Source: a virus. Taken from it: DNA of 34,392 nt. The position numbers and the translations under genes are program-made. Position 1 is the stretch's first letter, and the number at the start of each line of letters is the position of its first letter. The notes beneath the pieces are model-generated. The model did no database searches and was not told the DNA's origin. It saw nothing but the letters and a program-made list of their open reading frames with translations. Of this stretch, positions 6,548 to 32,326 are shown one piece after another. The stretch spans positions 1-34,392 of the IMG/VR virus record IMGVR_UViG_3300042691_020856; one strand, written 5' to 3'.

Positions 6548-6549
6548 TC

Positions 6550-13343: not shown

Positions 13344-16300
13344 ATGGAAAATAATCCTTTTGATAATAAAAATTCTTTATCTGAAAATATTACTAACAGA
13401 CCCGCAGTAGCATTAGGTATACCAAAGCAATCAATAGTTCCCTTTCCTAACCTTCAACAAGGATCTCAGGAAAATAAAAATCCTATTGATTTATTAAGAA
13501 GCATAGTGGCATCTCCTTCTAAAGACCCTAGAGTTTCTTCTATTCCTATTTCTTCTTTTTCTACAGATCCAAGATATTCCAGAGGTACAAGACCTGGAGA
13601 TGATTGGGAAGAAGCTTATGCTCAAAATCAAACTTTTGTTGAAAAAGCAGGAGCTATTTTAAAAGGAGTCAATCTTGCAGGAACTACAATAGCAGGAGGA
13701 TTTTCTAATATTCTTGTAGGTATTCCCTCTGCATTTATTAAAGGAGACATTACAAAAATTTGGGATAATCCTGTTAACCAAGGATTACAAAAATGGAATG
13801 AAAAAGTTGATAGAGAATATCTTCCTAATTTTTACACAAAACAAGAACAAGAGGCTGATTGGTGGAATACTGACAACTGGGTTACATGGAACTTTTTGTT
13901 TGATAAACTTATTAAAAACTCAGGGTATGCTGTAGGAGCAATGTATTCAGGTAATATTGCCAATTCCCTTTTTTTAAAAGCAGGCAATGCTATTGGTAAA
14001 GGAGCAGCAGCTTTGGGAACTACAGCAGAAGCTAGTCAAGCTTTTAAACTTGCCACTCCTTTATTAAGAGGAACATCAAGAGCTTTTTCCCAAGGAAAGA
14101 ATATTGAAGCTTTTGAAGTTTTAACTTCTGAAATATCTTCAATTGCTGATGCAACTAAAAAAGCAAATCAACTTTCTCAAATAACAAATACTGCTTCTAA
14201 GTTTGCAAATTTTGGAAATACAGGAAGAAGAACACTCATTTCTTTATATTCTTCTGCAGGAGAATCTTCTATGGAAGCTATTATGGGTGGTAATCAAATG
14301 AGAGAAAAATTAATTACTGATTTTTTTAACCAAAATGGATATGAACCAACGGGAAAAGATTTAGAAAATATAAATAACACTGTAAAAGAATTTGGAAAAC
14401 AATCTTTCTTTGGAAACATGGCTCTTCTTGGAGCTACAGAGTTTGTACAACTTCCTTATTTAATGGGCTCTTCTTGGAAAAATTCTAAAAATGCTATTAG
14501 AAATATTACAGATAATGTTGTTAGAACAGGTTCTGTAATAGAAGAAGTTGTTCCTAAAACAAAATTTGGTAAAGTTTATAAAGGTTTTAAAAAGTATGGA
14601 ACTTATGTTTTTGATCCAAAAGAAGCTGGACAAGAAATAGGGCAATATGCTTTAGAGGTTGGTGCTTCTAATTATTTTAATAAACATAAAGAAACAGATG
14701 CTGCAGAAGGATGGATTGATTCTGTTTTAAGTTCTTTGGAAAATGTTCCTGGAGTTGTAAAAAATGTTTTATCTTATGGTATGTTTGGAGAAGATGAAAC
14801 AGGAAAACCTGTAGGAGCATTAGTATCTAAAGAAGGAATTGAAGGAGGTATTCTTGGTGGTATTACAGGCGGATTAATGCAGGCTACTATTATAAGAGCA
14901 CAACAAATCCAAAGAAAAAATAACACTCAATCTTTAATAGAGCAATCTAAAAATGCTCCTTTACTAAGAGATGTTTTAATAGATAGAATTAAAACAGTAA
15001 ATAGAGGAATTGTTTTACAAGAACAACAAAAAAACTCTGTTTTAAATAATGATTTATTAGAATCTAAAGATTTAAAAACAGACTTGGCTTTTAACTATGC
15101 TATGCATAAAGTTAAATTTGGAAGAACTGACCTTGTTCTTGATGAAATTCAAGAGTTAAGAAAAGAAATAATGACTAAAGGTTTAGAAGGTTTTTCTTCT
15201 TTACAACAAGAAGGAATTGGAAATACATTAGACTCTAAAGATCAGTTTCTTTCTAGACTTACAGAAATTGAAACATTTGTAAAAGATCTTGATAGTACAT
15301 ACGAAAACTTAAATACATTATATGGATCTCAAACAATTAAAGATGTTAAAACAGAAAAACTTTTAAAAAAGTATTCAGACAGTGCTATTGAAAGACTCTC
15401 TTATATTACTACTAAAATTAAAGATTATGATACTAGAATTCCACAATTAAAATTAGAATTAGGTTTAAAAAATATTGTAGTAGATAATGCTCTTGCTGAT
15501 GTTGTTAAAAATCCTGATTCAGAGGCAATAGATATGCAACTTTTGGAAATTGATTCTTTAGATCCAGCAGAATATACAAATGAAGAGAAAGATTCTTTAA
15601 AAAAATCTGTCTTAGATTTAACAGAGATTACATTAAGAAAAAAACTTTTTATAGATGAATATAATGAAGTAGTAAAAAATCCTGAAAATTATATTGAACT
15701 TTCTGAAGAAACACAACTAATAAATAATAAGGGAGAATTAGTAGATGCAAATGGTAATATAATTCCTAAAGAAACTATAAAAATTAAAACTAAAAAAGGA
15801 GAAAGAAATATTGAAATTGGTACAGAGTACTTTTTAGGAAAAAGAGTATTTGAAGATAGTAAAGGAAAAGAAGTATACAGAACTCCTAAGATAACTATAT
15901 TAGGAGAAAATGAAGATGGTACAATTAAAATTAAAGATGCTAAAGGAGATATAAGAGATATTTCTAAAGATGAATTACTTGACTATAGTTTAGCAAAAGT
16001 TTCATCTACATTAAATAATAAAACAGCTAAGTATTACTTAGAGCACATGAACTCTGTGTTTTCTTTTTATGGTAAAAAAGTTACAAATGAAAAAGGAGAA
16101 AGAGTTCCTGTAAAAGGAAGACTTGAGTACTTTCAAACAGAAGATGGACAAAAAGATAAGTTGTTTTTTGTTTACAAAAATGAGAAAGGAGAGATAGTTA
16201 AAAAAGAAATAGATGGTTCAATGGTTGTACCTAAAAAAGGGTACAAACATGCTATATTAAAACATGTAGGAGAACTAACACCTGCACAACAAAAAGCAGA

Positions 16301-19300
16301 AGAAAGTTTTGGTAAAACAACCTCTTCTAGTTTACAAGCAAAACTTCAAAGAAGAGAAGAAACTCTTAATCAGTTATACGAAGAAGTTTTAGAGAAAAAA
16401 GAAAACACAGAAAAACTTATTTCTGAAAAAACTGCTCAATTAGAAAAATTAAAAAAACAAATAACTGATATAACTGATCAGATTGAAACTAATAAAAATC
16501 CTGAAGATAAAAGATTTAAAAAATTTACATTAAAAGAAACTATTTTTGATGCTATTTCACAATTAAAAGCATTATCAAAAATGGAACAAGATCTTCAACA
16601 AGAGCTTGAAGAACTATACACTGTAGATGATGAATTAAAACTAAATATAGAATATATTGAACAGCTTATTGATAACATAGAAGAACTTCCTACATCAACA
16701 AAAGAATTTATTAATGAATTAAATGATGAACTTATTGATTTAAATATACTAGTTGAAGAGACTGGTAAACAAATTAATACAGTTAGTTCTTTAATGGATG
16801 CTACTAGAGATGCTATTAAGGCAGCTATTAAGTATCTTAGTGGTTTAATCAAAAACTTTGAGTCTAGATATTTTAATGTTCCTTCCCCAGAGGGACAACA
16901 ATGGGTTGATTTCTTAAAAGCAAATCCTAATTTCTTAAAAACAAAACCAAACTACAAAGCTGAATTGTCAGCTCTTGAAGAAATTATAGCTACAACAGAA
17001 GATTTTACAATCACTCCTTCTGAGGCTAGACTCCAAGATCTTGAAGAGCATTTAGATATACTAAATGGTGCTATTAAAGATTATGAAAAACAAATTAAGG
17101 TTAGAGAAGATGTTCTAGCTAAACTAGAAGATATATACAAAAAAGCTTTAGAACAAAAACAACAAGAAAAAGAACTAGCTAATAATGAAGCATTATTACA
17201 AGAGTTTATTGGTACATTAGATAGTGGTATACAACCTATAGCTTCTACTTCTAATAGTGAAAAAGTTTATGAGCAAGATGCAAAGAAAAGTGATTATGAT
17301 GTAGTGGGAGGAACTAGGCCTATATCTAATGCTAGACCACATAACTTAAGAGCTAATAGATTTGGTTCTAGATTTAATTCATTACCAAAGTCTAAAAAAG
17401 AAAATATAAAAGGTAGAATTGTTACACTAAAAACAGAAGAGTTACAAGGAGTTCCTGGACTTTCTAATTTAATAGTAGATGGAGAAGCAGATCCTAAAGA
17501 TGTAATTGCTTTAGTAATGGTGATAATGAATGAGGATGGTTCTTATTCATTAGTTGATGAGTTTGGTAATGCATTTACAGAAGAACAAAAACAAAATCCA
17601 TTAGAACATGCTGTATTCCAAGTATTTCCAGGTGATAGTTTACAAGGAAAATATTCTGGAAAAACAGAATCTATGTTTAGAAATGCTACTGCTGAAGATA
17701 GAAAAGAAATTATTAATGAGCTGACTAAACAATATAGAGAGTGGAGAAAAGATCAACTTTCTAAAGAAGAATTAGAATACCCAAAAGATTTTAAAACTTC
17801 ATTTGGTATTCCTGAGTATGTAACAATGCTTGTTGAGAAAACAGTTGATGGTAAAACAATTCAAGTTGAAGAAATAAATTATAATGCTACAACTCCTGTA
17901 GAAAAAACAGGACTGGTATCTAAAAAAGATTTATCCTCTAAAAAAGTTATTGCATTCTCTACAAGTGATTCAGTAAGTGAAGGATCTGTTACATTTAAAA
18001 CAGGACCTGGTAGAGTGTTTCTATCTTTACCTGGGGGTCTTATTAAACTTAATAATAGAAAACTAACACAGGAAGAAGCTACAACAATCTATGAAGCAAT
18101 ATATCAACTTTCTAAAATAGCCTTTGATAAAGGAACAATAAAAGATAATGATGAGGCACAACAGATTGTTCGTTGGTTAAAGAGTGTTGTTTATTGGGGT
18201 ATTGCAAAAAATACTCAAACAGGAGAAAGAAAGAAAGCTGGATATAATAATATATGGTTTGAAGACATCACTGATGATAAAGGAGTTAAATCAACTAGGT
18301 TATTTATATCAGGACTAGGTGGTAATATGAGTTTTGCTCCTACAGAATTATCTAATAGAAGAAATGAATTAATAACATTAATATCATCGCTTTATCATAA
18401 TGTAAGTGGTACACAAGTAAATGATAATTCTTGGAGTGTACCTTATACACAAATACTTGGATTTGATAAAAATGGTGAAGCCATTACTAGAGAGTGGCCA
18501 AACTACCAAACATATCTCCTATCTTCAGAAGGAAGAAAAGATGGAGAAATTCCTTTAACAACAATTATAAGACCACAACAAGGAGAAAATGATGTTGTTA
18601 GAAAAGGAATGTATTTTACATTAAATCAAACAGCAGATACATTTAACTTTGAATTAGCTAAACCAGCACCAGTTGTACAAAAAGAAAATGCACCTGTAAC
18701 ACCTGCTCCTGAACAAGCTCCACCTACTAAACCTGAAGAAAAAACTTCTGAATTTAAATTTGATAATAAAACTCCTAATCTTTATCCTTTTAATAGTGGT
18801 AAAGTTAATGTATTATTAGATGAAAATGGAATTGCTAGTTTCGTAGTTGATAATAAAAATGAATTAGATTTAGAAACTTCCAATACAATAAAGGCTGTTG
18901 CTAAAGCTAAAAATATGTCAGAACAAGAAGCAGGCTCTTTATTGCTAACAGCCATTGAGGCAAAAACAAAATTAATTGCTATAGCCAATTCTATTCCTCA
19001 AGATAATGCTGTTACAGCAGCTCCTGTAGTAGAATCTCCAGTTGAACAACCAGTTGCTGAAGCTGAAATTCCTACAGAAGAGACATCAGAAGTAATTACT
19101 AAAGAAACCAAACCTACTGAAGAAGCTGCTACTACAACAGCTAACCCATTTGCTAATAGACCAAAAACAAATGGTATAGAAGGTATTGATAAAACAGCGT
19201 ATAGATTTGAAACATATAAACAATTTAGACAATTTGCTCCAGAGAACTTTAATAAACTAGAAGAATGGTTAACAGCTAATTTTCCTAATCTTCCTGTATA

Positions 19301-22300
19301 CAGAGTTAAGAATATAATTAAAGCTTCTAATGGAAGACAAGCTTGGGGAATGTTACATAAGGGAGCAATCTATTTATATGAGAATGCAGAGACAGGTACA
19401 GCTTACCATGAAGTATTTGAAGCTGTATGGGCTATGATGACTACTACTCAAGAAAGAATTAACATAGCTAAAGACTTTAGAAATAGAGAAGGAAGTTATA
19501 TAGATAGATTTACAGGAGAAACTGTTGTTTATAAAGATGCAACAGATGATCAAATGAGAGAAGAACTTGCAGAAGAGTTTAGAGATTATGTTTTATATGA
19601 TAAAAACCCTCAGCAAGCTCCTAACCCAAAAACTCCTTCATTCTTAAAAAATATATTTGATTGGATAATTAACGGAATTAAAACATTCTTTGTAGGCAAA
19701 GATGCTGCTAAGAACACACAAGAACTATTTGATAGAATAGGAAATGGTTATTATAAATCTTATATACCATTTGAGCAAAAACTTTCTTTTGCTAATGTAG
19801 GGTATACAGATATTACAGAAGTTATTCCTGATAACTCTTCTGTATTTAGAGCTAAAATAGAAAACTTAAGTGCAACTGATATTCATCAGATTATGCAACA
19901 AATGACCTATACTACAATCACTCAAATGATTGGTAATAATCAAAGTTTATTTAATATTACATCTATAGATAGAAAGAAGATGTATGATATTATTAAAGAT
20001 GATTTATTAAATAATAGAATAGGGGCAATGGCTGACCAAGTTCTTTTAGATATTGAGAAAAATAAAATAACTAAAGAACAAGGTGATGTATATTATAACA
20101 ATATAGGAACATTATATAATAATGTATATAACCAATGGCCACTGCTTCAACAGAAACATGAAGAGTATTTGCAATCATATGGAATTGTATTTGATGAAAA
20201 TGATGAAATAAACTATGATGATTATGAGAAATCTAAAGATGAAGGCTATGGTGATCCAAGACAAATTGATGGATTTAAAAAACTAAATAATACAATTAAA
20301 CTTTTATTATCAAGTTTGTCTGAATCTACTTTTGTAAATGGTGGTACAGCTACAGAGTCTAAAATAAACAATGTTGGGGGAGTTACATTAGTTCCTCTTG
20401 GAAGTGTATATGTTGATCTTTTAAATCAACTACATAACTCTGTGGACCAGTCTGATATGATTAATAAGTTTAGAAAAGCTTCAAGAAATAACCCTAACTA
20501 TGTTTCTTTATTTGAAAGAATGTTTAAAGTTAGTCCTCTTTCTGAAAATCCAATAGACTACACTTTATTGAGTAAGGAAGATCTAAGACTTATAGATGGG
20601 TTTTGGAAAACATTTAAAAAACAATCTCCTACAGTTTCTGCACTATTTATATTAGGAAATGGAGATATTGTTGTTGGAGATTCTAATACATCTGGTGCTG
20701 TTAGAGAGTATAGAAGACAATTTATAAACTCTATTCTAGAAGGTGCAAGAACAGGTACTAATCCATATATTACAAAAGATAAAACAAAAGGATTTGTAAG
20801 AACAAAAGCATTAACTGCGCTTAATGAACAAACAGATATAGCACAACTAGTTAACTTTCTTTCTAATTTAGGAATAGAATTTTCTGAAAAAGAATTGAAG
20901 AAAGCTAATTATGATGTTCAAAAAATGTTTAGAAATGCTGCTAATGGTATTATTAGAAGTTTAAAAGAAAGAGTTACAGATACTGGTATAGAAAAGATAA
21001 ATGTAAATACATTAGATGTATCTGGAAGATTATTAGAACTAGGACTTGTTAAATCAAAATTAGAAACTTCTGACTTTGATACAACGTATTTTAATATTAA
21101 TGGGGAAAGATCTCAAACTTTCTTGGGTCCTAATTTATTAAGCTCATTCTATGATGTTATTTCTAAAGTTGATAAAATATCTGACTTAGCTAATACAAAC
21201 TTTGGATATTTAATAACAGATACATATTCTAACATAGGAAGTGTAATGTTAAATAGAATATTTGATGAGAATGGAGATAAGAGAGAAGGTCTTAGTTTAG
21301 AAACTTTAAAACCATTTATTATAGATGGTACTATAAATGAAGAGCTAGGAAAAAATACTGAGTCTTCAAGACTCACTAAAAGACAGAGATATCTTCAAGA
21401 ATTAAATATGAACTTGAAAGGAATATACATGAATCTTGTTCCTGGTGATGCTAATATGCAAACTGCTATAAAGCTACATGATTCTGACAATCCTTTTGTA
21501 ACAAAGGATATGCTTTTGAGCAAAGGGTATATGAATATATTTAAAGATCAATTTATTTCTGAAATTACAATGTCTAGAGAAATAAATAGACAGGTTGCTA
21601 AAGGAAGAAATAATGAAAACTTAAGATTTTTTAAATCTATATTGGGAGAATCTCTTCATAAAAAAATTGTAAACAAAGCTCAAAATACAAATGTTTCTGC
21701 AGAAGAAATATATGAAGATTTTAAAACAGAAATTAATGATAGGGTTAAAGAGTTTATAGACACTAAAACAGATAAATCATTAAATAAAATGAAAGAATAC
21801 AACATTATAAAACCTTCTGCTGAAGGAAATTATAATGTTGAAAATGTTTCTATTTTTAATACAGATGAATCTTACACAATAGATGCTATTAGAAGTGCAA
21901 TTAAACAACAGCAAATTAACTTTATGATTGCTAATGTTGAATTACACAAACTTCTATACTCTGATCCTTATCAATATTCTGATCAGCTTAAACGTATTAA
22001 AAACTTTACTTCTCCAAGACAAATTCTTTCTTATGGAAACAATGAAATAAATTCTAGATATGGAGAATTATATAACAATAACAACCCTGAAGATAAATTG
22101 TTTAACACCAACTTTAATAGAGACACTATTAATGGTGGAACAATATCTGATGTTCTTTCAGATAATGAAGAGTTAGGATATGATGCATTTGAGGAAACAG
22201 ATGGTGGTGGTTATATTACAGATAAGGGATTAAGATATACCAAAATCAAAAATGGTGAATGGACAGATGAAAATGAAGAACAATACATATATGATATGGC

Positions 22301-25300
22301 ATATATGAAAAAAGTTCTTAATAAACCATTAAATACTGTTGAGAAAGAAAGACTTAAAAAAGGTAATCCTTTTGAGCAAAGTAATTACACTCCTATAAAA
22401 CCTATTGTTGCAGGTAATAAAAACATGGGAAGAAGTTATAATGATGTACTTCTTGATAAATTCTCTTTGTTTCCTATTTCATTTAGAATGATACATGAGC
22501 TTAATCCAACAGCTAACATGTTAAAACTTTATGAAAAAATGATTAATGATGATGTAGACTATGTTGTTTATGCATCAGGAAGAAAAGTTGGTAAAGAAAA
22601 TATTTATGAGTTGTATGATAAAGATGGAAACTTTAATGAAGCTCCTTTAATTAGTGCTGAAGAAAAGAAAAACCCATTAGGAAAACAAACTGTTCTTACT
22701 ATTCCTCTTTCAATATTTGCTATTCAAACAGAAGTTCCTACAAAAGAAAATAATAAAGTTACTCAAGGATCACAACCTACAAAGTTAGCTACTATGGACT
22801 TTATGGAAGCTGGTGTGCCTATTGACTTTATGTCTGATGAAAAAAATTTTACAACTCGTTATAATGAATGGATTAAATTATTAGATAAAGGTTCTTATAA
22901 TGATGGTGATAATTTATATAATGAAATAAAGAATAATCAAAATCTTCTAGAAGCAAGAATACAAGATGGACTAAGCTCTTTATTTAAAGAACTAGGAATA
23001 ACAAAAGTAGGAGATGATAAGTACACACTATCTAAACCAGAATTAACATTTGATATTCTTAAAAAAGAATTATTAAAAAGAGAGATTAATGATAATATAG
23101 TAGATGCATTAGATGGTTATGAAGATGGTAAGTTTGTACTAGAAGCTATTCCTTCATACCAACAAATTAGAAACATATTATACTCTATTGCACATAGAGC
23201 TGTTGTATCTACAAAACTAAAAGGAGGACAAAAAGTACAAGTATCTTCTGCATTGTTAGAGTCTCAAAGAGCAAAAGCTAAAGAAATAACTGATAGTAAA
23301 GGAAATACAAAAACTATATACGAATCAGATATACTTAAGTTCTATACAAATAAGGATGGAAAAAGAGCATGTCAGATTATGATATCTAGATGGTTTAAAA
23401 GTCCTTTATCTGATGAAGAGCTTATAAACTATTTTAACAATACAGAAGAAGGTAAAAAACAATTATCTGCTTTAGCTGGTATTGCTTTTCGTATTCCTAC
23501 ACAAAAACAAAATTCTATTGAAGTATTTGAAATTGCTAAATTTCTTCCAGAAGGATATGGTGATTCTGTTATTGTTCCTTCTGCTTTAGTTAAGAAAGTA
23601 GGAAGTGACTTTGATATTGATAAACTTTTCATTTATCTAAAAAACTTATACCCTTCAAAAAATAACTCTTTAAAAGTTGTTCCTTATTTTGGAATTGGTA
23701 AAGAAGCTAAAGCTAAATTTGAAGAATTATATAAAGCTGGAGAATTTGATGAATATATAAAAACTAAAAAAGATGCTCTTCCGCAGGGAGAAGCAGAAGA
23801 TAGATTGTTTGAAAGTATATTTCCAGAAGAATATAGTAATTCTAAAGAAGAAATTATTAATGGTTTGTATAGACAATCTTTAGACAATGCTTATGTAGAC
23901 TCTTTAGAAAAACTTATATCTCATCCACTCAATTTTAAAAACTTAGTTAAACCTAACTCTGCAGAACAATTACAAAAATTAACTACTGATATTGAAACTC
24001 TTCTTGGTTCTAAAAAAATAGATTACTCTGATGTTGGAGAAATGTTAGATAGAGAGTTTATGTCTGAATTAAGAAATGACTTTGTTAGAGCAAAAACTGC
24101 TATTGGTATTGCAGCTACATCTCAAACAGGTAATGCGCAAGCTCAAAGAAGTGTTCTATCAATAGATAGAACAAAATTAAATCGTGTTTCTGAAAGAGAC
24201 AGAGCTTTTCTTGGAGATGCATTAATTAAATTTGAAAACTTTAACTCAGTTAAAGGCATGCCTACATTATCAATAATTGAAGATGCTAATGCTATTCCAG
24301 AAGATAGAAACTATATTTCTGATGTAATTGGACAAGTTATTGATGGGTATGTAGATGCTGCTAAAGACCCTTGGGTTATGCGTTTAGGAATTACTCCTAA
24401 TGTTGCTGGAACTTGGTTATTCTTAATTAGAACTGGTGTACCATTAGAAAATGTTGCATACTTTATGAATCAACCAATTATTAAAGACTTGTTGCAAACA
24501 TTAGAAAACAATGGATATTCATATATATTTAATAACAAGTATATAAATGCTGTTAAAGAAGGATATGAATACGAAGCTATTGATTCTGAAAACCTTGAAA
24601 TTAATGTTATTCCTGGTGTTGATGAGCTATCGAAAATGATTGGAAAAGATGAAGAAACTTTATCTCCATATCAATCATTACAACAACTATTTATATTAGA
24701 TGAGTTTTTGAAATACTCAAAAATGGCTGAACAACTACTAACATTTACACAAGCTACAAACTTTGATACAGCAACATTTAATGATCCTTTTTTAATAGCT
24801 AAGAAACTAAGACAAATAGAAAAAGCTAGAAATACAATTTTTTCAGATGTTGATGATTTCTTAGACTCTTCTTTTATTGGAGAATTAAAAAATTCTTTAA
24901 ATTCATTTAGAGATGGAATTGCTGAAATACTGCTATCAGATAAAAGAAATAACCCTAATGGTCAATCTATAAGAGAGGTGTTAGAGCAAGTGTTAGAACC
25001 ATACATGGATATGAATGATAAAGACTTTGTATCTACAAGTAAAAAAGCAGTGCTAACATTATTTGATTGGGCTGTACAAACTAATAGAAATTTAAACACA
25101 CAGCTTACAAAAGTTTTGCTTTCTAATGAAAAAGGAGAATCAACTGCCTCTGAATTAATGAAATTAAAAAGAGATGCTGAAAATCCTAATCATCCTTTGT
25201 ATAATAATTATGTTCTAAAAGCATTACAGATTGAAAAAGGAAATAGTGAAACTGAACCAGACAATTTATACATTAATTCAAAAGATGTTAAAGTGTATGA

Positions 25301-26258
25301 TCAAAATCAAATCATATATGCTTTAAGAGAGATTAAAAAATTATTACCAGAGTCACAAAAACCATTATATGGAAATTTAGTAAGACTTGCTGTATTACAA
25401 TCAGGGCTTTCTAATTCTAGAATTTCTTTTACAAGCTTGCTTCCTTTTGAAGATTTTGTTGAAGTATATAATCAAACTCTTTCACAAATAGATAAACTTC
25501 CAAATCTTTCTGATTTTGTAGATATGAATGTATTTGAAAGAGGAAATTGGAATGATCCTAATATTGTAGATCAACATAAAGAAAGAGTTATTCTAACTAA
25601 AAAAGGAAGATTCAAACCTGAAACTACACTAGTGTCTAAAAAATTAAAAGATGCAATGGATAAAGGACAGATTCCAAAAACCATAAACATCTCTGCAAAT
25701 TCAATGGAAGCCAATAGTGATGTAATTACATACATATGGTCAGACATGACTGTAAATAAAGATACAAAAAGAGAAATGGTTAAGAAAGGGGATTATTCTT
25801 TTATGAAAAAAGGATTATTCAAGAAAGTTTATTCTAAAAATAAAAAAGGAATTTCTTCTCCAATTGTATATGAAACTATTTCTACAGATAAGGTAACTAA
25901 AAAAACAACAGTTTATAAAAACTATGTTTATAAAATGATTAATGCTTGGGGAGATTCTCTATATGCAAAAGAATTTTATGATAAAACCTATCCTGAGATT
26001 TCAACATCAACTGTTTCACAAGCATCTGTATTTGATAATGGATACGAAAAAGTTATTGAAAAAAACATTACAAATGTTGTAGCTGGGATAGAATTTAAAG
26101 GTAAACAAAGTGCTGAAGTAGAAGACAGTGTTATTGTAGAAATACTTGGAAACTCTGCATATGTAGAAGGAGATGAATTTATTTCTTCATTTGAAGAAGA
26201 ATCTCTACCTTTACAAACAGAAGAAGAAAAAAAAGATGATACTTGTAATCCTTTTTAA
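13344..26258 (+). CDS. Giant 4304-aa virion-type polyprotein with single-chain RNA polymerase core (DFDID)
   Basis: Domains in order: residues ~95-215 with Gly/Ala-rich hydrophobic segments (possible membrane insertion); ~550-960 mixed helical and beta-rich; ~975-1290 long coiled coils; Pro/Glu linkers ~1773-1810 and ~1893-1932; a degenerate zincin site HEVFE at 2022-2026 followed by EELAEEF near 2074; then the polymerase region. R3383-IPTQ...SIEVFE followed by GSDFDID (D3422, D3424, D3426) parallels the RxPTLH...IQAF and NADFDGD blocks of the beta-prime double-psi barrel, with Ile for Gly. About 270 residues upstream, SGRKVGK and QGSQPTKL are candidates for the Lys-bearing beta-like barrel. 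In crAss-like phages such an enzyme is packaged and ejected to transcribe early genes. The C-terminus is acidic and ends DDTCNPF. Polymerase identity is strong; the outer domains are unassigned. Confidence 0.85.
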   Translation: MENNPFDNKNSLSENITNRPAVALGIPKQSIVPFPNLQQGSQENKNPIDLLRSIVASPSKDPRVSSIPISSFSTDPRYSRGTRPGDDWEEAYAQNQTFVEKAGAILKGVNLAGTTIAGGFSNILVGIPSAFIKGDITKIWDNPVNQGLQKWNEKVDREYLPNFYTKQEQEADWWNTDNWVTWNFLFDKLIKNSGYAVGAMYSGNIANSLFLKAGNAIGKGAAALGTTAEASQAFKLATPLLRGTSRAFSQGKNIEAFEVLTSEISSIADATKKANQLSQITNTASKFANFGNTGRRTLISLYSSAGESSMEAIMGGNQMREKLITDFFNQNGYEPTGKDLENINNTVKEFGKQSFFGNMALLGATEFVQLPYLMGSSWKNSKNAIRNITDNVVRTGSVIEEVVPKTKFGKVYKGFKKYGTYVFDPKEAGQEIGQYALEVGASNYFNKHKETDAAEGWIDSVLSSLENVPGVVKNVLSYGMFGEDETGKPVGALVSKEGIEGGILGGITGGLMQATIIRAQQIQRKNNTQSLIEQSKNAPLLRDVLIDRIKTVNRGIVLQEQQKNSVLNNDLLESKDLKTDLAFNYAMHKVKFGRTDLVLDEIQELRKEIMTKGLEGFSSLQQEGIGNTLDSKDQFLSRLTEIETFVKDLDSTYENLNTLYGSQTIKDVKTEKLLKKYSDSAIERLSYITTKIKDYDTRIPQLKLELGLKNIVVDNALADVVKNPDSEAIDMQLLEIDSLDPAEYTNEEKDSLKKSVLDLTEITLRKKLFIDEYNEVVKNPENYIELSEETQLINNKGELVDANGNIIPKETIKIKTKKGERNIEIGTEYFLGKRVFEDSKGKEVYRTPKITILGENEDGTIKIKDAKGDIRDISKDELLDYSLAKVSSTLNNKTAKYYLEHMNSVFSFYGKKVTNEKGERVPVKGRLEYFQTEDGQKDKLFFVYKNEKGEIVKKEIDGSMVVPKKGYKHAILKHVGELTPAQQKAEESFGKTTSSSLQAKLQRREETLNQLYEEVLEKKENTEKLISEKTAQLEKLKKQITDITDQIETNKNPEDKRFKKFTLKETIFDAISQLKALSKMEQDLQQELEELYTVDDELKLNIEYIEQLIDNIEELPTSTKEFINELNDELIDLNILVEETGKQINTVSSLMDATRDAIKAAIKYLSGLIKNFESRYFNVPSPEGQQWVDFLKANPNFLKTKPNYKAELSALEEIIATTEDFTITPSEARLQDLEEHLDILNGAIKDYEKQIKVREDVLAKLEDIYKKALEQKQQEKELANNEALLQEFIGTLDSGIQPIASTSNSEKVYEQDAKKSDYDVVGGTRPISNARPHNLRANRFGSRFNSLPKSKKENIKGRIVTLKTEELQGVPGLSNLIVDGEADPKDVIALVMVIMNEDGSYSLVDEFGNAFTEEQKQNPLEHAVFQVFPGDSLQGKYSGKTESMFRNATAEDRKEIINELTKQYREWRKDQLSKEELEYPKDFKTSFGIPEYVTMLVEKTVDGKTIQVEEINYNATTPVEKTGLVSKKDLSSKKVIAFSTSDSVSEGSVTFKTGPGRVFLSLPGGLIKLNNRKLTQEEATTIYEAIYQLSKIAFDKGTIKDNDEAQQIVRWLKSVVYWGIAKNTQTGERKKAGYNNIWFEDITDDKGVKSTRLFISGLGGNMSFAPTELSNRRNELITLISSLYHNVSGTQVNDNSWSVPYTQILGFDKNGEAITREWPNYQTYLLSSEGRKDGEIPLTTIIRPQQGENDVVRKGMYFTLNQTADTFNFELAKPAPVVQKENAPVTPAPEQAPPTKPEEKTSEFKFDNKTPNLYPFNSGKVNVLLDENGIASFVVDNKNELDLETSNTIKAVAKAKNMSEQEAGSLLLTAIEAKTKLIAIANSIPQDNAVTAAPVVESPVEQPVAEAEIPTEETSEVITKETKPTEEAATTTANPFANRPKTNGIEGIDKTAYRFETYKQFRQFAPENFNKLEEWLTANFPNLPVYRVKNIIKASNGRQAWGMLHKGAIYLYENAETGTAYHEVFEAVWAMMTTTQERINIAKDFRNREGSYIDRFTGETVVYKDATDDQMREELAEEFRDYVLYDKNPQQAPNPKTPSFLKNIFDWIINGIKTFFVGKDAAKNTQELFDRIGNGYYKSYIPFEQKLSFANVGYTDITEVIPDNSSVFRAKIENLSATDIHQIMQQMTYTTITQMIGNNQSLFNITSIDRKKMYDIIKDDLLNNRIGAMADQVLLDIEKNKITKEQGDVYYNNIGTLYNNVYNQWPLLQQKHEEYLQSYGIVFDENDEINYDDYEKSKDEGYGDPRQIDGFKKLNNTIKLLLSSLSESTFVNGGTATESKINNVGGVTLVPLGSVYVDLLNQLHNSVDQSDMINKFRKASRNNPNYVSLFERMFKVSPLSENPIDYTLLSKEDLRLIDGFWKTFKKQSPTVSALFILGNGDIVVGDSNTSGAVREYRRQFINSILEGARTGTNPYITKDKTKGFVRTKALTALNEQTDIAQLVNFLSNLGIEFSEKELKKANYDVQKMFRNAANGIIRSLKERVTDTGIEKINVNTLDVSGRLLELGLVKSKLETSDFDTTYFNINGERSQTFLGPNLLSSFYDVISKVDKISDLANTNFGYLITDTYSNIGSVMLNRIFDENGDKREGLSLETLKPFIIDGTINEELGKNTESSRLTKRQRYLQELNMNLKGIYMNLVPGDANMQTAIKLHDSDNPFVTKDMLLSKGYMNIFKDQFISEITMSREINRQVAKGRNNENLRFFKSILGESLHKKIVNKAQNTNVSAEEIYEDFKTEINDRVKEFIDTKTDKSLNKMKEYNIIKPSAEGNYNVENVSIFNTDESYTIDAIRSAIKQQQINFMIANVELHKLLYSDPYQYSDQLKRIKNFTSPRQILSYGNNEINSRYGELYNNNNPEDKLFNTNFNRDTINGGTISDVLSDNEELGYDAFEETDGGGYITDKGLRYTKIKNGEWTDENEEQYIYDMAYMKKVLNKPLNTVEKERLKKGNPFEQSNYTPIKPIVAGNKNMGRSYNDVLLDKFSLFPISFRMIHELNPTANMLKLYEKMINDDVDYVVYASGRKVGKENIYELYDKDGNFNEAPLISAEEKKNPLGKQTVLTIPLSIFAIQTEVPTKENNKVTQGSQPTKLATMDFMEAGVPIDFMSDEKNFTTRYNEWIKLLDKGSYNDGDNLYNEIKNNQNLLEARIQDGLSSLFKELGITKVGDDKYTLSKPELTFDILKKELLKREINDNIVDALDGYEDGKFVLEAIPSYQQIRNILYSIAHRAVVSTKLKGGQKVQVSSALLESQRAKAKEITDSKGNTKTIYESDILKFYTNKDGKRACQIMISRWFKSPLSDEELINYFNNTEEGKKQLSALAGIAFRIPTQKQNSIEVFEIAKFLPEGYGDSVIVPSALVKKVGSDFDIDKLFIYLKNLYPSKNNSLKVVPYFGIGKEAKAKFEELYKAGEFDEYIKTKKDALPQGEAEDRLFESIFPEEYSNSKEEIINGLYRQSLDNAYVDSLEKLISHPLNFKNLVKPNSAEQLQKLTTDIETLLGSKKIDYSDVGEMLDREFMSELRNDFVRAKTAIGIAATSQTGNAQAQRSVLSIDRTKLNRVSERDRAFLGDALIKFENFNSVKGMPTLSIIEDANAIPEDRNYISDVIGQVIDGYVDAAKDPWVMRLGITPNVAGTWLFLIRTGVPLENVAYFMNQPIIKDLLQTLENNGYSYIFNNKYINAVKEGYEYEAIDSENLEINVIPGVDELSKMIGKDEETLSPYQSLQQLFILDEFLKYSKMAEQLLTFTQATNFDTATFNDPFLIAKKLRQIEKARNTIFSDVDDFLDSSFIGELKNSLNSFRDGIAEILLSDKRNNPNGQSIREVLEQVLEPYMDMNDKDFVSTSKKAVLTLFDWAVQTNRNLNTQLTKVLLSNEKGESTASELMKLKRDAENPNHPLYNNYVLKALQIEKGNSETEPDNLYINSKDVKVYDQNQIIYALREIKKLLPESQKPLYGNLVRLAVLQSGLSNSRISFTSLLPFEDFVEVYNQTLSQIDKLPNLSDFVDMNVFERGNWNDPNIVDQHKERVILTKKGRFKPETTLVSKKLKDAMDKGQIPKTINISANSMEANSDVITYIWSDMTVNKDTKREMVKKGDYSFMKKGLFKKVYSKNKKGISSPIVYETISTDKVTKKTTVYKNYVYKMINAWGDSLYAKEFYDKTYPEISTSTVSQASVFDNGYEKVIEKNITNVVAGIEFKGKQSAEVEDSVIVEILGNSAYVEGDEFISSFEEESLPLQTEEEKKDDTCNPF
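19407..19421 (+). other. Degenerate zincin motif HEVFE in the giant polymerase protein (H2022-E2026)
   Basis: The context GAIYLYENAETGTAYHEVFE resembles phage zincin domains where GTxYHExFH is usual; here the second His is Glu. A Glu-rich segment EELAEEF about 50 residues on could provide another ligand. It sits just after a Pro/Glu linker and before the polymerase region. Confidence 0.55.
23607..23621 (+). other. RNA polymerase catalytic loop DFDID (D3422-D3426)
   Basis: Three Asp residues spaced DxDxD, preceded by a RIPTQ block 39 residues upstream and followed by the hydrophobic KLFIYLK. This is the Mg-binding signature of the largest RNA polymerase subunit and of single-chain two-barrel polymerases; the usual Gly at position 4 of DFDGD is Ile. 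Confidence 0.85.
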
Positions 26259-26267
26259 TAATAAAAT

Positions 26268-29200
26268 ATGAAACTTTGTCATAGAGATAAAAAACAAATG
26301 CCTTCTATTGAGGGAACAAGACTTGCTTTAATTCAAGAAAAAATTTTAGATGAAAAAAATCCTTTATTAATTATTAATAAAGAAGAGTTTGATATAGAAA
26401 ATGATTCTCTGTCTAAAATTGCAAATCAAAAAACTGGTAAAGAAGGAAGTCTTTATACAGTTGAAGATAGATCTAAGATAAGAGATATAAGTAAAAATTC
26501 TGATGGCTCTACATATAGAGGTTCTACAATAATTCAATATTATGCAATTCCTAATAAAGAATTATTTGATGCATTAGATGCAGCAAAAAATAAACCTTCA
26601 TTTCAACTTGAAGGTGTTCCTGCATCTAAAGCTTCTAAAGAAACTATAGAGAAAGTTAAGAAGGTGATTGAGCAAATGGGTGTTAACATTGTTGCTCTAC
26701 AAGATTATTTAAAAGGAAATCCTGATGTAAATGCAAAAGATGCTACAGCACTTGCAGATCTTGTACAAGGAATTATTGCTATTGCTGAAGGAAAAGAAGA
26801 TGTTGCTCTTACAGAAGAGATGGTGCATATTGCTACAGCTATTATAGAGCAAGTAAATCCACAACTAGTTACAAACCTTATTAGTAAAATCTCTCAATAT
26901 AAAATATACAACATTGTATTAAATAAATACAAAAATAACAAAGCATATCAATTACCAAATGGTAAACCAAACATTCGTAAGATAAAAAAAGAAGCTGTAG
27001 ATAAATTAATAGCAGAAATGATTATTAATATGTCTGAGGGCACTACAGAGTTTCCCGAGCTATTAGAGAAAGAAAGTAGAAACTTAGTTCAACAAATGTG
27101 GGATGCTATTCTTTCTTCTATTAGATCTTTATATGGAAGATCTGATATTGATTTGTTTGAACAAACAGCTCAACAAATTTCTGAAGGAAACCTAGGAGCA
27201 GGAATAGAAGTTTTAGAAGGAACAGAAGACCAAGGCATATTCTTTCAGCTGGAAGAAAATCAAAAAGTAAATGAAGCATTTGGTAAGTTTAAAGATATGA
27301 ATGATAGAATGAACTTTATTGATGCAAATGAAACAGAAAAAAGACATTATACGTATGATAAAAACCCTTTAGAATTTACAGTTACAACATTAAAGAAAAA
27401 GAAAGACCTTAAAAGAACAGATGAAGAAAAGTTATTAGATGATCAAAAAAGAGCATGGGGATCGGAAGGTCATGATTTTTTAGAAAAATATATCAAAAAA
27501 AATCTTATTAATAAAGATGGATATGCTTTACCTACTGATAGAGAAGAGGAAATAGCTACACCATTAAATGATGATGTAAAAAAATCTATTATTATTTTTG
27601 CAAAAGAACTTATAGCATCATATGAAGATGGTACAAGATTTTTAGTTGAAACATATGTAGCTAATCTAAAAGTTAAAGGAGGTATGGGATCTAAAATTGA
27701 CTTTATGGCTTTTGAACCTGTTAAAAATAGTAAAGGAGAGTCAGATGTTAAAGTGGATATATTAGACTGGAAATTTACAAGTTTTAATACAGAGTCTAAT
27801 ACAGACATTCCTTGGTATAAACAAGATGAGTGGAAAGCACAAATGGGTGAGTATACAAAAATTGCTTATAACTTAGGAATTGAAAGAAATCAATTGAGAA
27901 GAGCAAGAATGATTCCCTTTATAACAAACTATAGATATGCAATTAAAAATAATAAAACTTCAGGACTTGTTGCAAGATCTGTAGAAGTAGGAAAAATAGA
28001 TTCATTAAAAGAAACAAACGTTTATTTACTTCCTGTTCCTGTCGATTTTGAATCTACAGGTAATGAATCTGTTGATACATTTATTTCTAGTCTTAGAAAA
28101 TTGTATGAAAAAATGTATAAATCTACTGCTAAGCCAGAAGATAAATTTTCTAAAAATTTAAAACTAGAACAACTTAGTCTTGCTATTAGAAACTTACATT
28201 TAAAACTAAACTTCTTTCCTGTATATGATGTTGCTAAAACATTCTTAAATGATATGGAATTAACCATACAAGAATTCGATGGTATAGATTTTAACACCCT
28301 ATCTAAAGATGAGTTAAATACAAAGCTTGAAAAGCTAGTAGAATATCAAAGAAGTGCTGAAAAGTTTACACAATTAAGTAATGTGTATACATCACACATT
28401 CCTAGAGAAAACATGTCAGTTGAAGAGTTAAAGTTATTAAATAATTTTGATAGACTTTCTGCAGGAATAAAAAGAAAACTAAAAGAAATACTATCTATTC
28501 AACAAGAATATGTTCTTCAAAAAGGACTAAAAGAAGGAATTGTTGAAGAAGAAAATGTAGGAGACATTTTAAAAGCTGAAAAATTAGTATCTAGCTTAGA
28601 CAAAAACTTCTTAGAGAGTTCAAAACTTTCCCCACTAATTATACAGTTGGCTGCTAAAGTTTATTTAAAAGCTAAAAATTTAATTAATGTTAATTTTAGT
28701 AAAGTTGCAAATAATTATTCAAAAATATTAATTCCTCTAGAAGAGGAAGCAAGATCCAAAGGTAAAACAGCTTTTGAAATGATTGGCACTCTAACTGAAA
28801 GAGGTCCTAGACTAATTAAAAAATTAGACTCTAAATTTTTAGAAGATATAAAAACAGCTAAAGAAAAAGGAAACAAACAATTTTTATTAGATAATTTAGA
28901 TGTTGAAGAATATAAAAGACTAACTGATCCATTAATAGAAAGAACACTAGATGAATTAGAAAGAACACAATTTTCTTCAGATGAAACAGAAAATGAGGAA
29001 ATAAAAGAAAGAAGAAAAAATAGATTTATTAACTCTATAGATATTACATCAAACACTTTTGATGGTTTTGAAAATTATACATTTCAATATTACTACAGAC
29101 AAGCTATGATTGAAGAAGGTCATTTGTCTAAAGAGTTTTTAGAAATGTCTAAAAGTGAAAATGCTTTAAAAGTTTGGAACTTTTTTACAGAACTGAACGA

Positions 29201-31232
29201 GAAAGCTAGAAAGATGGGATATTTAGATAAACAAGGACTTTCTTTTTTTCCATTAATAGAAGCCACCACTCTTCAAAAAATGTCTCAATCAGGAGATATA
29301 CTAAAAGAAACAAAAGATTTCTTTAAAGATATGTATAGTATAAACCCTAACGAAGAACAATTATATGCAAAGGTTGATGAGGAAACAGGAGAATTAAAAA
29401 GAGTTATCCCTAAGTACTTTACAAGAACTAATAAAGATGTAGCACAACTATCCACAGACTTAAATAAAGTTGGCCTTATGTGGATTAAGTCTTTAATGGA
29501 ATATGAATCTACAAAAGATTTAGAGTTTCCATTATTAGTAATGCATTCGGTTGAGCAATCTAAAGGATCATTAATTACAGATACTAAGGGAGAGGTAGTA
29601 TTTGAAGGACAAACCCCTAAAGAACGTGCAGAAAATGAGAATGCAAATCTTTTAGAAGCAATACTAGATGATTACTTATACGGAATTACAGAGAATTTAA
29701 ATTCAATGGGAAATATATTAATGACTTCCACTGTTTCTAAATTGTCAAAAAATAAAGATAAGGTAGAAGATAGAACTATATCTACAAAAAAACTACTAAG
29801 AACAGGTGATACTTATATTAGAAATCTTGCTCTTGGTCTTAAACCATTAATTGGGGTAGCTAACTGGTTTGGAGCCCAAATGCAAATGTATATTAATTCA
29901 GCAGGATTTTATCTTCCAGGAGAATTTGAAAAAAATAATGTAAAAGTTACTCTTCCAATAGGAAAACTTTCTCTTATTGAAAAAGCTTTATTAGATACTA
30001 TTTCACCTCTTACAGGAGAAAGTGTTGTAGAAATAAAACAAAGAATGATAGCAGAGAAAAAATCATATGCAAGCTATTTAGCAACATGGACTTTTTCTGA
30101 TGTAATGATGTCTACAAACTCTTTTGGTGAAAAGAAATTAGAATTAGCTAATGCTTTAACAATGATTGATAATGCAATTGTTATTAATGGAAAAATTATA
30201 AACATTAGACAACATTTAAGAGCTTTGGATAGACAGGCTAGAAAAGGAATGACATTTGAGCAAAGAAAGGCCCTAGAAAACTCTTTTGAAGAAAGAGTTA
30301 AATCTCTTAAAGAAGGAAACACTTCATTAAAAAAATTATCAAAAATTGAAAATGATGAACTAGTTATAGAAGGAGTTAGTGATGAAGAACTTGCTAAATT
30401 TAGAATGGGTATTATTGATTTTTCTAGAAACCTAACAGGACAAATGAGTAATGATGATAAGATGGGATATAGAAGAGATACTATTTTTAATTCATTCATG
30501 ATGTTTAAAGGATGGATTCCCAAACTTCTTTCTGTTAGATACAAAAATATTACAAAAAATACTGCAACAGATGAGTGGGAGTATGGTAGATATAGAGCTT
30601 TCTTTTCAACCTTAAGTCAAATTGGTTACAAAAATATAACAGATCTTAGAGATATTACTCTTGGTACAGATAAAGGTCTTGCTATAATAAATGAAATGCT
30701 AGAAGCAAAAAAACAACAATACTATTTACAAACAGGAAAAGAATTAAACATAACTGAAGAAGAGTTTCAAGACTTAATTAGAACTCAAGTTAAAAACATG
30801 TTTAAAGAACTTAAGCTTATAGTAGGTATTCTTTCATTACTGGTTGCTGCAAAGTTAGCTGCACCTGATGATGATGAAGATATTCTTACTAAGAATAGAT
30901 ATAAGTATGTTGCTAAAATGATAAATAAAATATCTGATGAGCTTTTGTTTTATGTAAACCCAGCATCTGCAGATGAAATGACAAGAGGTTCCATTATTCC
31001 TTCTTTAGGTCTTTTTTCAAAAATTGGAAGTTTACTTAATGCTTTAAGAAAAGAAGTATATTATACAGCAATAGGGGATGAAAAAGAAGCAGATAAAGCT
31101 TATCCAATGAAATATTTTATTAATTTATTTCCTGTAGCATCTCAAGCATTAAATGAAGCTCTTCCTTATATTGATGCAGAATATGCAAAAGAAATGGGTG
31201 TTAGAGTTACAGCAGAGTCTAGAAGACAATAA
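26268..31232 (+). CDS. Giant 1654-aa virion-type protein with RecB/Cas4-like PD-(D/E)XK nuclease domain
   Basis: Residues ~395-540 carry the full RecB-family signature in order: G-x-E-G-H (H402), ID (D478), ILDWKF (D500, K502) and QMGEY (Q525-Y529, the QxxxY motif). Before it, residues 178-195 contain DVALTEEMVHIATA (E183-E184-x-x-H187), a motif I remember from crAss-like proteins but cannot assign. The middle and C-terminal parts are long Lys/Glu-rich helices, with one hydrophobic segment at ~1513-1531 (LKLIVGILSLLVAAKLAAP) followed by an acidic DDDED. It follows the polymerase gene by 9 nt without a promoter, so co-expression and co-packaging are likely. The domain could trim or degrade DNA on entry, or act in packaging. 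The nuclease fold is well supported by motifs; substrate and timing are inference. Confidence 0.78.
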   Translation: MKLCHRDKKQMPSIEGTRLALIQEKILDEKNPLLIINKEEFDIENDSLSKIANQKTGKEGSLYTVEDRSKIRDISKNSDGSTYRGSTIIQYYAIPNKELFDALDAAKNKPSFQLEGVPASKASKETIEKVKKVIEQMGVNIVALQDYLKGNPDVNAKDATALADLVQGIIAIAEGKEDVALTEEMVHIATAIIEQVNPQLVTNLISKISQYKIYNIVLNKYKNNKAYQLPNGKPNIRKIKKEAVDKLIAEMIINMSEGTTEFPELLEKESRNLVQQMWDAILSSIRSLYGRSDIDLFEQTAQQISEGNLGAGIEVLEGTEDQGIFFQLEENQKVNEAFGKFKDMNDRMNFIDANETEKRHYTYDKNPLEFTVTTLKKKKDLKRTDEEKLLDDQKRAWGSEGHDFLEKYIKKNLINKDGYALPTDREEEIATPLNDDVKKSIIIFAKELIASYEDGTRFLVETYVANLKVKGGMGSKIDFMAFEPVKNSKGESDVKVDILDWKFTSFNTESNTDIPWYKQDEWKAQMGEYTKIAYNLGIERNQLRRARMIPFITNYRYAIKNNKTSGLVARSVEVGKIDSLKETNVYLLPVPVDFESTGNESVDTFISSLRKLYEKMYKSTAKPEDKFSKNLKLEQLSLAIRNLHLKLNFFPVYDVAKTFLNDMELTIQEFDGIDFNTLSKDELNTKLEKLVEYQRSAEKFTQLSNVYTSHIPRENMSVEELKLLNNFDRLSAGIKRKLKEILSIQQEYVLQKGLKEGIVEEENVGDILKAEKLVSSLDKNFLESSKLSPLIIQLAAKVYLKAKNLINVNFSKVANNYSKILIPLEEEARSKGKTAFEMIGTLTERGPRLIKKLDSKFLEDIKTAKEKGNKQFLLDNLDVEEYKRLTDPLIERTLDELERTQFSSDETENEEIKERRKNRFINSIDITSNTFDGFENYTFQYYYRQAMIEEGHLSKEFLEMSKSENALKVWNFFTELNEKARKMGYLDKQGLSFFPLIEATTLQKMSQSGDILKETKDFFKDMYSINPNEEQLYAKVDEETGELKRVIPKYFTRTNKDVAQLSTDLNKVGLMWIKSLMEYESTKDLEFPLLVMHSVEQSKGSLITDTKGEVVFEGQTPKERAENENANLLEAILDDYLYGITENLNSMGNILMTSTVSKLSKNKDKVEDRTISTKKLLRTGDTYIRNLALGLKPLIGVANWFGAQMQMYINSAGFYLPGEFEKNNVKVTLPIGKLSLIEKALLDTISPLTGESVVEIKQRMIAEKKSYASYLATWTFSDVMMSTNSFGEKKLELANALTMIDNAIVINGKIINIRQHLRALDRQARKGMTFEQRKALENSFEERVKSLKEGNTSLKKLSKIENDELVIEGVSDEELAKFRMGIIDFSRNLTGQMSNDDKMGYRRDTIFNSFMMFKGWIPKLLSVRYKNITKNTATDEWEYGRYRAFFSTLSQIGYKNITDLRDITLGTDKGLAIINEMLEAKKQQYYLQTGKELNITEEEFQDLIRTQVKNMFKELKLIVGILSLLVAAKLAAPDDDEDILTKNRYKYVAKMINKISDELLFYVNPASADEMTRGSIIPSLGLFSKIGSLLNALRKEVYYTAIGDEKEADKAYPMKYFINLFPVASQALNEALPYIDAEYAKEMGVRVTAESRRQ
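27471..27854 (+). other. PD-(D/E)XK nuclease catalytic region (H402, D478, D500/K502, Q525/Y529)
   Basis: Ordered motifs of the RecB/Cas4 group within one 128-residue span. All the metal-binding and catalytic positions I would expect are present, so the domain looks active rather than decayed. Confidence 0.75.
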
Positions 31233-31350: not shown

Positions 31351-31857
31351 ATGTCTTTGTCAGATTGGCTTAATACAAACTGGATGCTTTTGTCAACAGT
31401 TGGTGCATCTATAAGTGGAATAGTTGGTTGGTTTTTAGGGGGCAAGCAAGCTAAAGCACAAGAATTAAAAAGAGGTGATGTTGAAATAGAATCAGCAGAA
31501 GTTGACTACGCTGCTAAAGTTAGAGAATTATATGATAATTTAAATACGAAATTAGCACAAGAAAATGAGGGTCTTAAGAGTGATAAAGAGGCAATAGTTG
31601 CTGAATTTAAAGCTGAAAAAGAATACTTTAGAAGTCAAATAGACACTCTTAGATCTCAACTAGGAGAAATGCAAAACCAATTTAATGTTATTCAATTAGC
31701 ATATGCTAAGGAAGTTGAACAATCTCAAAATTGGGAAAAACTACATAGAGAACTCACAGATAAATATAACGCTCTAGCAAAAGATCACGAAGAATTAAAA
31801 GGCTTATATTCTAAATTAAAAGATGATTTTGATAAACATAAAAAAGCAGCAAAATGA
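31351..31857 (+). CDS. Membrane-anchored coiled-coil protein of the lysis cassette (holin candidate)
   Basis: 168 residues: one N-terminal hydrophobic segment at about 11-28 (WMLLSTVGASISGIVGWF) and then a charged coiled coil to the C-terminus (EYFRSQIDTLRSQLGEMQ and similar heptads). It overlaps the lysozyme start through ATGA (31854-31857), which suggests translational coupling. Short one-helix membrane proteins in this position of Bacteroidota phages are often proposed as holins or pinholin-like factors, but the long coiled coil is unusual for a holin and could instead be spanin-like or act as an envelope tether. First gene after the TAGATTTG element. Confidence 0.65.
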   Translation: MSLSDWLNTNWMLLSTVGASISGIVGWFLGGKQAKAQELKRGDVEIESAEVDYAAKVRELYDNLNTKLAQENEGLKSDKEAIVAEFKAEKEYFRSQIDTLRSQLGEMQNQFNVIQLAYAKEVEQSQNWEKLHRELTDKYNALAKDHEELKGLYSKLKDDFDKHKKAAK

Positions 31858-32324: not shown

Positions 32325-32326
32325 TT

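What the first reader, a model, noticed from the sequence alone, without database searches (positions are those of the whole stretch)
23490..23632. Single-chain RNA polymerase with DFDID instead of DFDGD inside a 4304-residue protein
The block R3383-IPTQ...SIEVFE...GSDFDID reproduces the order of conserved blocks of the beta-prime barrel, but the Gly of DFDGD is Ile. All three Asp are kept, so metal binding should survive; the Ile may alter loop geometry next to the growing RNA. The host protein is about twice the length of the structurally studied crAss-like polymerase of phage phi14:2. From memory I believe DxDxD variants occur in crAss-like phages, so the variant may mark a subclade rather than be unique.
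Basis: partly seen in the sequence, partly recalled or inferred. Interest (0 to 1): 0.75.

Follow-up and report, generated by a model that had tools for sequence, protein, structure and literature searches.

The report
Ordinary crAss-like phage virion RNA polymerase
This giant phage protein contains an RNA polymerase of the kind that crAss-like phages carry into the bacterial cell, and the supposedly odd catalytic motif is the usual form in that enzyme family.

Summary
In detail: window 23490-23632 encodes RIPTQ...GSDFDID (residues 3383-3429) in an intact 4304-residue ORF. The suggested novelty fails. The solved reference enzyme, phi14:2 gp66 (PDB 6VR4), carries the same GSDFDIDK. A capped pattern scan of IMG/VR that leaves the fourth residue free gave 118 family members: Ile 76, Val 38, Gly 4. 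Of 19 named phages examined: Ile 10, Val 7, Gly 0, and 2 with the frame broken inside the motif. An AlphaFold model of residues 2640-3800 (pLDDT 86.3) matches 6VR4 (Foldseek E 1.4e-33; VIA Z 21.0, 3.3 A over 928 residues); a profile finds 6VR4 at E 2e-160. The double length fits an N-terminal domain like gp67, the neighbouring phi14:2 gene (hhalign 95%, E 3e-8), in the same chain. All 9 named records examined outside Steigviridae have one CDS of 4253-4946 aa. Verdict: a new member of a known kind, low interest. Activity and packaging in the virion are inferred from phi14:2 and PhicrAss001. Open point: Ile/Val where DFDGD enzymes have Gly.

The parts
13344..26258 (+). 4304-aa ORF: gp67-like N-terminal domain plus gp66-like RNA polymerase in one chain
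   Evidence: nine full-length relatives have a single ORF of 4176-4694 aa
13530..14915 (+). residues 63-524, similar to phi14:2 gp67 residues 39-411 (gp67 is the gene next to gp66)
   Evidence: hhalign probability 95.1, E 3e-8 over 356 columns; plain BLASTP finds nothing convincing (best E 0.036, elsewhere in the chain)
19245..19703 (+). residues 1968-2120, zincin-like fold between the two modules, with a conserved HE-containing helix
   Evidence: AF2 model of residues 1290-2180, mean pLDDT 70.4, pTM 0.51; VIA Z 6.5 to zincin protease domains, weak; Foldseek finds nothing at E<=0.001; alignment A4
21411..24491 (+). residues 2690-3716, aligned with phi14:2 gp66 653-1657: polymerase core
   Evidence: BLASTP E 5e-26, 22% identity; A3 profile finds 6VR4 at E 2e-160; model matches 6VR4
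22398..22784 (+). residues 3019-3147 with Lys 3019, 3039, 3081 and Gln 3144 invariant in 44 of 44; assigned by inference to the beta-like barrel (DPBB-B)
   Evidence: the assignment to DPBB-B is inferred from order and from the 6VR4 match
23475..23654 (+). residues 3378-3437, beta-prime-like barrel block (RIPTQ...GSDFDIDKLFIYL)
   Evidence: modelled strands at model residues 739-743, 753-762, 769-772, 788-792, 796-798; alignment
23607..23621 (+). DFDID metal-binding loop, D3422, D3424, D3426
   Evidence: aligned with D1361, D1363, D1365 of gp66; the three Asp invariant in 10 of 10 of A1, whose rows were not selected by this motif
26268..31232 (+). 1654-aa downstream ORF at the position of gp65; carries a PD-(D/E)XK-like stretch; homology to gp65 not shown
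   Evidence: position; hhalign to gp65 probability 1.1; PD-(D/E)XK by eye

Best explanation
[quoted passage not shown] D3422, D3424 and D3426 in the beta-prime-like barrel hold the catalytic magnesium. After ejection with the genome the protein refolds and transcribes the early phage genes. The Ile in DFDID is the family's ordinary residue. Shown here: homology, fold, place of the motif, conservation. Inferred from phi14:2 and PhicrAss001: metal binding, packaging, ejection, early-gene transcription, activity.
For: phi14:2 gp66 = PDB 6VR4 carries the same GSDFDIDK. BLASTP E 5e-26 aligns the two motifs. hhalign gives probability 99.7. hmmsearch finds 6VR4 at E 1.4e-21 with the 10-sequence profile A1 and 2e-160 with the 44-row profile A3. 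The AF2 model has pLDDT 86.3 and pTM 0.84; Foldseek gives 6VR4 E 1.4e-33 and QDE-1 1.1e-6; VIA gives 6VR4 Z 21.0, 928 residues at 3.3 A, and QDE-1-type Z up to 13.7. The three Asp are invariant in 10 of 10 of A1, found by other peptide patterns; in A3, blocks outside the motif are invariant in 44 of 44 (K3019, K3039, K3081, Q3144, R3383, P3385). Family survey: Ile 76, Val 38, Gly 4 of 118. Named phages: Ile 10, Val 7, Gly 0 of 17 readable, 2 broken. Relatives carry crAss-like portal (7 of 9) and large terminase (6 of 9).
Against: Plain phmmer at E<=1 with the whole protein or its C-terminal 1804 residues does not find 6VR4, and Pfam (E<=1, nothing above cut-off), PHROGs (E<=0.001) and NCBIfam (E<=0.01) give no usable match, so the claim rests on BLAST pairs, profiles and the model. 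The GSDFDxDK conservation seen in A3 is partly by construction: 33 of its 44 rows were found through that pattern. phi14:2 major capsid protein finds nothing in nine relatives. No metal, template or activity was observed. The gp65 equivalent could not be shown by sequence.
Confidence: 0.94

Rival explanations
1. The Ile in DFDID is a phage-specific variant that changes loop geometry and the behaviour of this particular enzyme.
For: Gly is at this position in P23-45 gp96, DFDGD (PMC10770324, passages); bacterial and QDE-1 motifs with Gly are recalled.
Against: The reference enzyme has the same residue; Ile or Val in 114 of 118 and 17 of 17 readable. It is not specific to this phage or to a small subclade.
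Confidence: 0.02
2. The motif is a chance DxDxD in an unrelated virion protein (for example a structural or tape-measure protein).
For: The DNA pattern appears in 7 of 100 shuffles of the window, and 2 of 120 pattern matches in IMG/VR were in proteins without similarity to the family.
Against: Homology over about 1000 residues and a fold match over 928 residues.
Confidence: 0.01
3. The chain is a dead polymerase remnant kept as a structural or ejection protein.
For: None found; activity was not tested.
Against: The three Asp are kept in 10 of 10 full-length members of A1, down to 40% identity, and DxDxD is read in 17 of 19 distant named phages; the ORF is intact and conserved in nine full-length relatives.
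Confidence: 0.03
4. The 4304-residue protein is a precursor cut into a gp67-like and a gp66-like part by a protease, possibly the zincin-like domain between them.
For: gp67 and gp66 are separate genes in phi14:2; a zincin-like fold lies between the modules.
Confidence: 0.08

Closest known systems
Cellulophaga phage phi14:2 gp66, virion RNA polymerase (PDB 6VR4)
   Same: Same single-chain fold, identical GSDFDIDK loop, same gene order (gp67 upstream, one large gene downstream)
   Different: 22% identity over the aligned core; here the gp67-like and gp66-like parts are one ORF (4304 aa) instead of two genes (1797 + 2180 aa); no HExxH in gp66 or gp67, one in gp65
Single-CDS giant polymerase proteins of 4253-4946 aa in cr4_1, cr50_1, cr118_1, cr10_1, cr1_1, cr6_1, cr125_1 (Suoliviridae), ctcc615 (Intestiviridae) and Fpv1 (no order given in the record)
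   Same: Similar size in one CDS and an Ile/Val motif
   Different: 21.9-26.5% identity over the aligned part; the gp67-like N-terminus was not tested in them; the ctcc615 CDS begins at base 1 of its record; cr125_1 has in-frame TAG
QDE-1 / RDR RNA-dependent RNA polymerases
   Same: Two-barrel single-chain fold (Z up to 13.7)
   Different: Gly in the catalytic loop (recalled); eukaryotic RNA interference enzymes
P23-45 gp96 tail-tape-fused virion RNA polymerase
   Same: Virion two-barrel polymerase inside a giant virion protein (PMC10770324, passages)
   Different: DFDGD; at the N-terminus of a tape measure protein; VIA Z 7.9 only

Membership tests
crAss-like (gp66-type) virion RNA polymerase | Sequence homology to phi14:2 gp66 | tested here: met
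   BLASTP E 5e-26; hhalign 99.7%; hmmsearch 6VR4 E 2e-160 with A3
crAss-like (gp66-type) virion RNA polymerase | Two double-psi barrels in one chain, gp66 fold | tested here: met
   Model pLDDT 86.3; 6VR4 E 1.4e-33, Z 21.0 over 928 residues. Met as an overall fold match; the barrels were not traced strand by strand.
crAss-like (gp66-type) virion RNA polymerase | DxDxD metal triad in the beta-prime-like barrel | tested here: met
   D3422/D3424/D3426 aligned with D1361/D1363/D1365; invariant in 10 of 10 of A1. Metal binding itself not testable here.
crAss-like (gp66-type) virion RNA polymerase | Packaged in the virion, transcribes early genes independently of host polymerase | not testable with these tools
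   Reported for phi14:2 in passages of PMC7886860 and PMC10136315; not tested for this phage
Order Crassvirales | crAss-like portal and large terminase in the genome | tested here: met
   In relatives, not in the window (a 34,392-base fragment): portal in 7 of 9, large terminase in 6 of 9 records with phi14:2 queries
Order Crassvirales | crAss-like major capsid protein | tested here: inconclusive
   0 of 9 records with the phi14:2 capsid protein as single query and no positive control
Zincin metalloprotease (domain at residues 1968-2120) | Zincin fold and zinc-binding site | tested here: inconclusive
   VIA Z 6.5, Foldseek nothing at E<=0.001; zinc-site motif not canonical in most rows

The most novel reading that the evidence does not exclude
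The crAss-like polymerase lineage as a whole replaced the Gly of the catalytic DFDGD loop by a beta-branched Ile or Val, with one nested clade back at Gly. The bulkier residue beside the metal and RNA 3' end may set a lineage-wide property of the enzyme (fidelity, backtracking, primer or template choice). The natural Gly clade offers a ready comparison.
Probability: 0.2. Interest if true: 0.45.

Novelty: new member of a known kind. Interest (0 to 1): 0.17.

Why it matters
It removes a false lead: DFDID is the standard form of this enzyme family and is present in the solved structure. It also gives a count of the Ile/Val/Gly states in 118 metagenomic and 17 readable named members, accounts for the double length by a gp67-like domain in the same chain, and points to natural Gly-bearing members as a comparison for anyone who wants to ask what the residue does.

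Tried and rejected
Pfam (E<=1), PHROGs (E<=0.001) and NCBIfam (E<=0.01) with the 4304-aa protein: nothing usable. phmmer of the whole protein or its C-terminal 1804 residues against the PDB at E<=1: no 6VR4; profiles were needed. BLASTP to gp67 and gp65: nothing convincing; hhalign recovered gp67 but not gp65 (probability 1.1). The major capsid protein of phi14:2 found nothing in nine relatives. Coiled-coil-like proteins hit by profile A1 around residues 1004-1230 were judged compositional, without a further test. A literature search for the literal string DFDID returned 16 papers, none relevant by title or listing (not opened). I make no statement that the Ile/Val state is absent from print: the phi14:2 structure paper (PMC12127119) and the 2018 crAss paper (PMC5736458) are not held, so anything about them is recalled.

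The middle-region model (residues 1290-2180) is only moderate (pLDDT 70.4, pTM 0.51). Its one structural lead is the weak zincin-like match; no function is claimed.

Rows dropped and sample limits. Counts are of sequences, not of independent events: L037 and L073 are identical and L044 and L102 nearly so over the tree segment. The tree has 122 rows: L009 and L010 lack the motif in the stored stretch, and rows with the motif near a contig end were left out; it is a quick search (42 of 117 inner branches open, several long branches), rooted at the midpoint. A3 is the window plus 43 of the 70 loci listed; 33 of its 44 rows were found through the motif pattern. A4 is the window plus 24 of the 40 loci listed. 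Named phages: 19 records examined out of 140 with matches, chosen by me for spread. Complete ORFs: 22 of 130 (9 of 4176-4694 aa, one of 3618, seven of 1943-2567 including phi14:2, five of at most 415); long ORFs are cut more often because the stretches are short.

Full report
What is there. The window is a 34,392-base IMG/VR virus record. ORF 13344-26258 encodes 4304 residues without interruption. The reported block starts at R3383 and ends in GSDFDIDKLF. DFDID (3422-3426, nt 23607-23621) is the only DxDxD in the protein. The motif by itself is not decisive: the DNA pattern occurs once in the window, 0.07 expected, with one in 7 of 100 shuffles, and an equivalent protein motif appears in 5 of 2000 shuffles. 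Homology settles it.

What it is. tblastn of residues 2501-4304 finds 140 phage records, among them many crAss-like phages and phi14:2 gp66 at E 4e-21 (60 records listed). phi14:2 gp66, which is PDB 6VR4, aligns with residues 2690-3716 (22% identity, E 5e-26), motif on motif. hhalign gives probability 99.7. A 44-row profile of the core finds 6VR4 at E 2e-160; the next two hits have E 1 and 2.6. The AlphaFold model of residues 2640-3800 is good (pLDDT 86.3, pTM 0.84); its best match is 6VR4 (Foldseek E 1.4e-33; VIA Z 21.0, 928 residues at 3.3 A), followed by QDE-1-type polymerases (Z up to 13.7).

The motif is the family norm. phi14:2 gp66 reads KTGSDFDIDKMYVML: the structurally studied enzyme has exactly DFDID. 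Of 120 stretches, 118 belong to this polymerase family (BLASTP E<=1e-3 to the window or gp66): Ile 76, Val 38, Gly 4; the other two are unrelated. Because that pattern fixes the flanks, I also looked at 19 named phage records found by similarity: Ile 10 (one as DYDID, Fpv1), Val 7 (one as DLDVD, cr111_1), Gly 0, and two, cr108_1 and cr116_1, in which the reading frame breaks inside the motif. In the window's own group, A1, the position is Ile 9, Val 1 of 10. On a tree of 122 members built with the position masked (Ile 84, Val 34, Gly 4), the four Gly members form one clade (SH-aLRT 93) nested among Val members, and at least 16 changes among the three states are needed. So Ile and Val interchange repeatedly, and in this sample Gly arises in one place.

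Why the protein is twice as long. In phi14:2, gp67 (1797 aa), gp66 (2180 aa) and gp65 (1421 aa) are consecutive genes. Residues 63-524 of the window protein match gp67 residues 39-411 by hhalign (probability 95.1, E 3e-8), with the gp66-like part following. Either two genes were fused here or one was split in phi14:2. Nine full-length relatives have the same single ORF, 4176-4694 aa. Among the named records, eight of ten Steigviridae have an uninterrupted separate polymerase gene of 2180-2562 aa (cr108_1 and cr116_1 are interrupted), while the nine records outside that family (seven Suoliviridae, one Intestiviridae, Fpv1) have single CDSs of 4253-4946 aa (calculated from the coordinates). The two sizes do not sort simply in IMG/VR: some complete ORFs there are 1943-2567 aa, for example L119, L018. 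A review gives sizes up to about 6000 aa (PMC10136315, passages). I tested the gp67-like N-terminus only in the window's own group.

Context. Relatives carry crAss-like portal (7 of 9) and large terminase (6 of 9) but no match to the phi14:2 capsid protein (0 of 9, without a positive control). The 1654-aa downstream ORF sits where gp65 would be, but sequence homology to gp65 was not shown. One paper reports that some crAss-like phages have a PD-(D/E)XK domain in a large transcription-block protein (PMC7886860, section 7 part 1), which fits what I see by eye in that ORF.

How it most likely works. By analogy with phi14:2 and PhicrAss001 (PMC7886860, PMC10136315 and PMC10172136, passages), the chain is stored in the capsid, ejected partly unfolded ahead of or with the DNA, refolds, and transcribes early genes independently of host polymerase. 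Homology, fold and motif position are shown here; metal binding, packaging, ejection and activity are inferred.

Results against the reading. Single-sequence PDB searches and three family libraries with the full protein gave nothing usable. The capsid protein query was empty. The conservation of GSDFDxDK in A3 is by construction in 33 of 44 rows, so I rest on A1 and the named phages instead. The tree is a quick one with open forks and long branches. The motif survey is a capped sample and holds near-duplicates.

Verdict. An ordinary new member of a known enzyme family. The one open point of some interest is the family-wide Ile/Val in place of Gly, with natural Gly members for comparison.

Noticed in passing
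L143 (cr108_1) and L149 (cr116_1), around the polymerase motif: The reading frame breaks inside the catalytic motif itself (after GSD and after GSDFD), and similarity resumes further on in another CDS; it looks like an intron-type insertion at the most conserved site. PMC7886860 reports disruption of this motif for the Zeta group (passage); these two are Steigviridae.
   Followed up: partly
window 19245-19703 (residues 1968-2120): Zincin-like fold between the gp67-like and gp66-like modules, conserved in the group, with a zinc-site motif that is not canonical in most rows; weak fold match (Z 6.5).
   Followed up: partly
L041, L044, L076, L102: The only four family members in the survey with Gly in the motif (GSDFDGDK), one clade nested among Val members.
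   Followed up: partly
L043, L080, L082, L118, L133: The motif lies in short reading frames of at most 415 aa, as if these polymerase genes were interrupted or use another code.
   Followed up: no
window 26268-31232: 1654-aa ORF at the gp65 position with a PD-(D/E)XK-like stretch (IDFMAFE...VDILDWKFT), by eye.
   Followed up: no
window 6526-7194: 222-aa HNH-like ORF with paired cysteines between two large genes, overlapping the gene before it; looks like a homing endonuclease, by eye; no Pfam match.
   Followed up: no
window 2867-6547: 1226-aa protein with an HExxH motif by eye, a DUF6973 match just under its cut-off and a C-terminal DDRGQWDHPGEITEI block.
   Followed up: no
window 7187-10396 and 1-417: 1069-aa protein with a partial tape-measure match (phrog_167, E 3.4e-9); a Fib_succ_major domain at the window's left end (E 5.3e-22).
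   Followed up: no
window 31854-32695: Endolysin (phrog_7, E 1.5e-48) followed by a spanin-like ORF (phrog_8821, E 8.6e-5).
   Followed up: no
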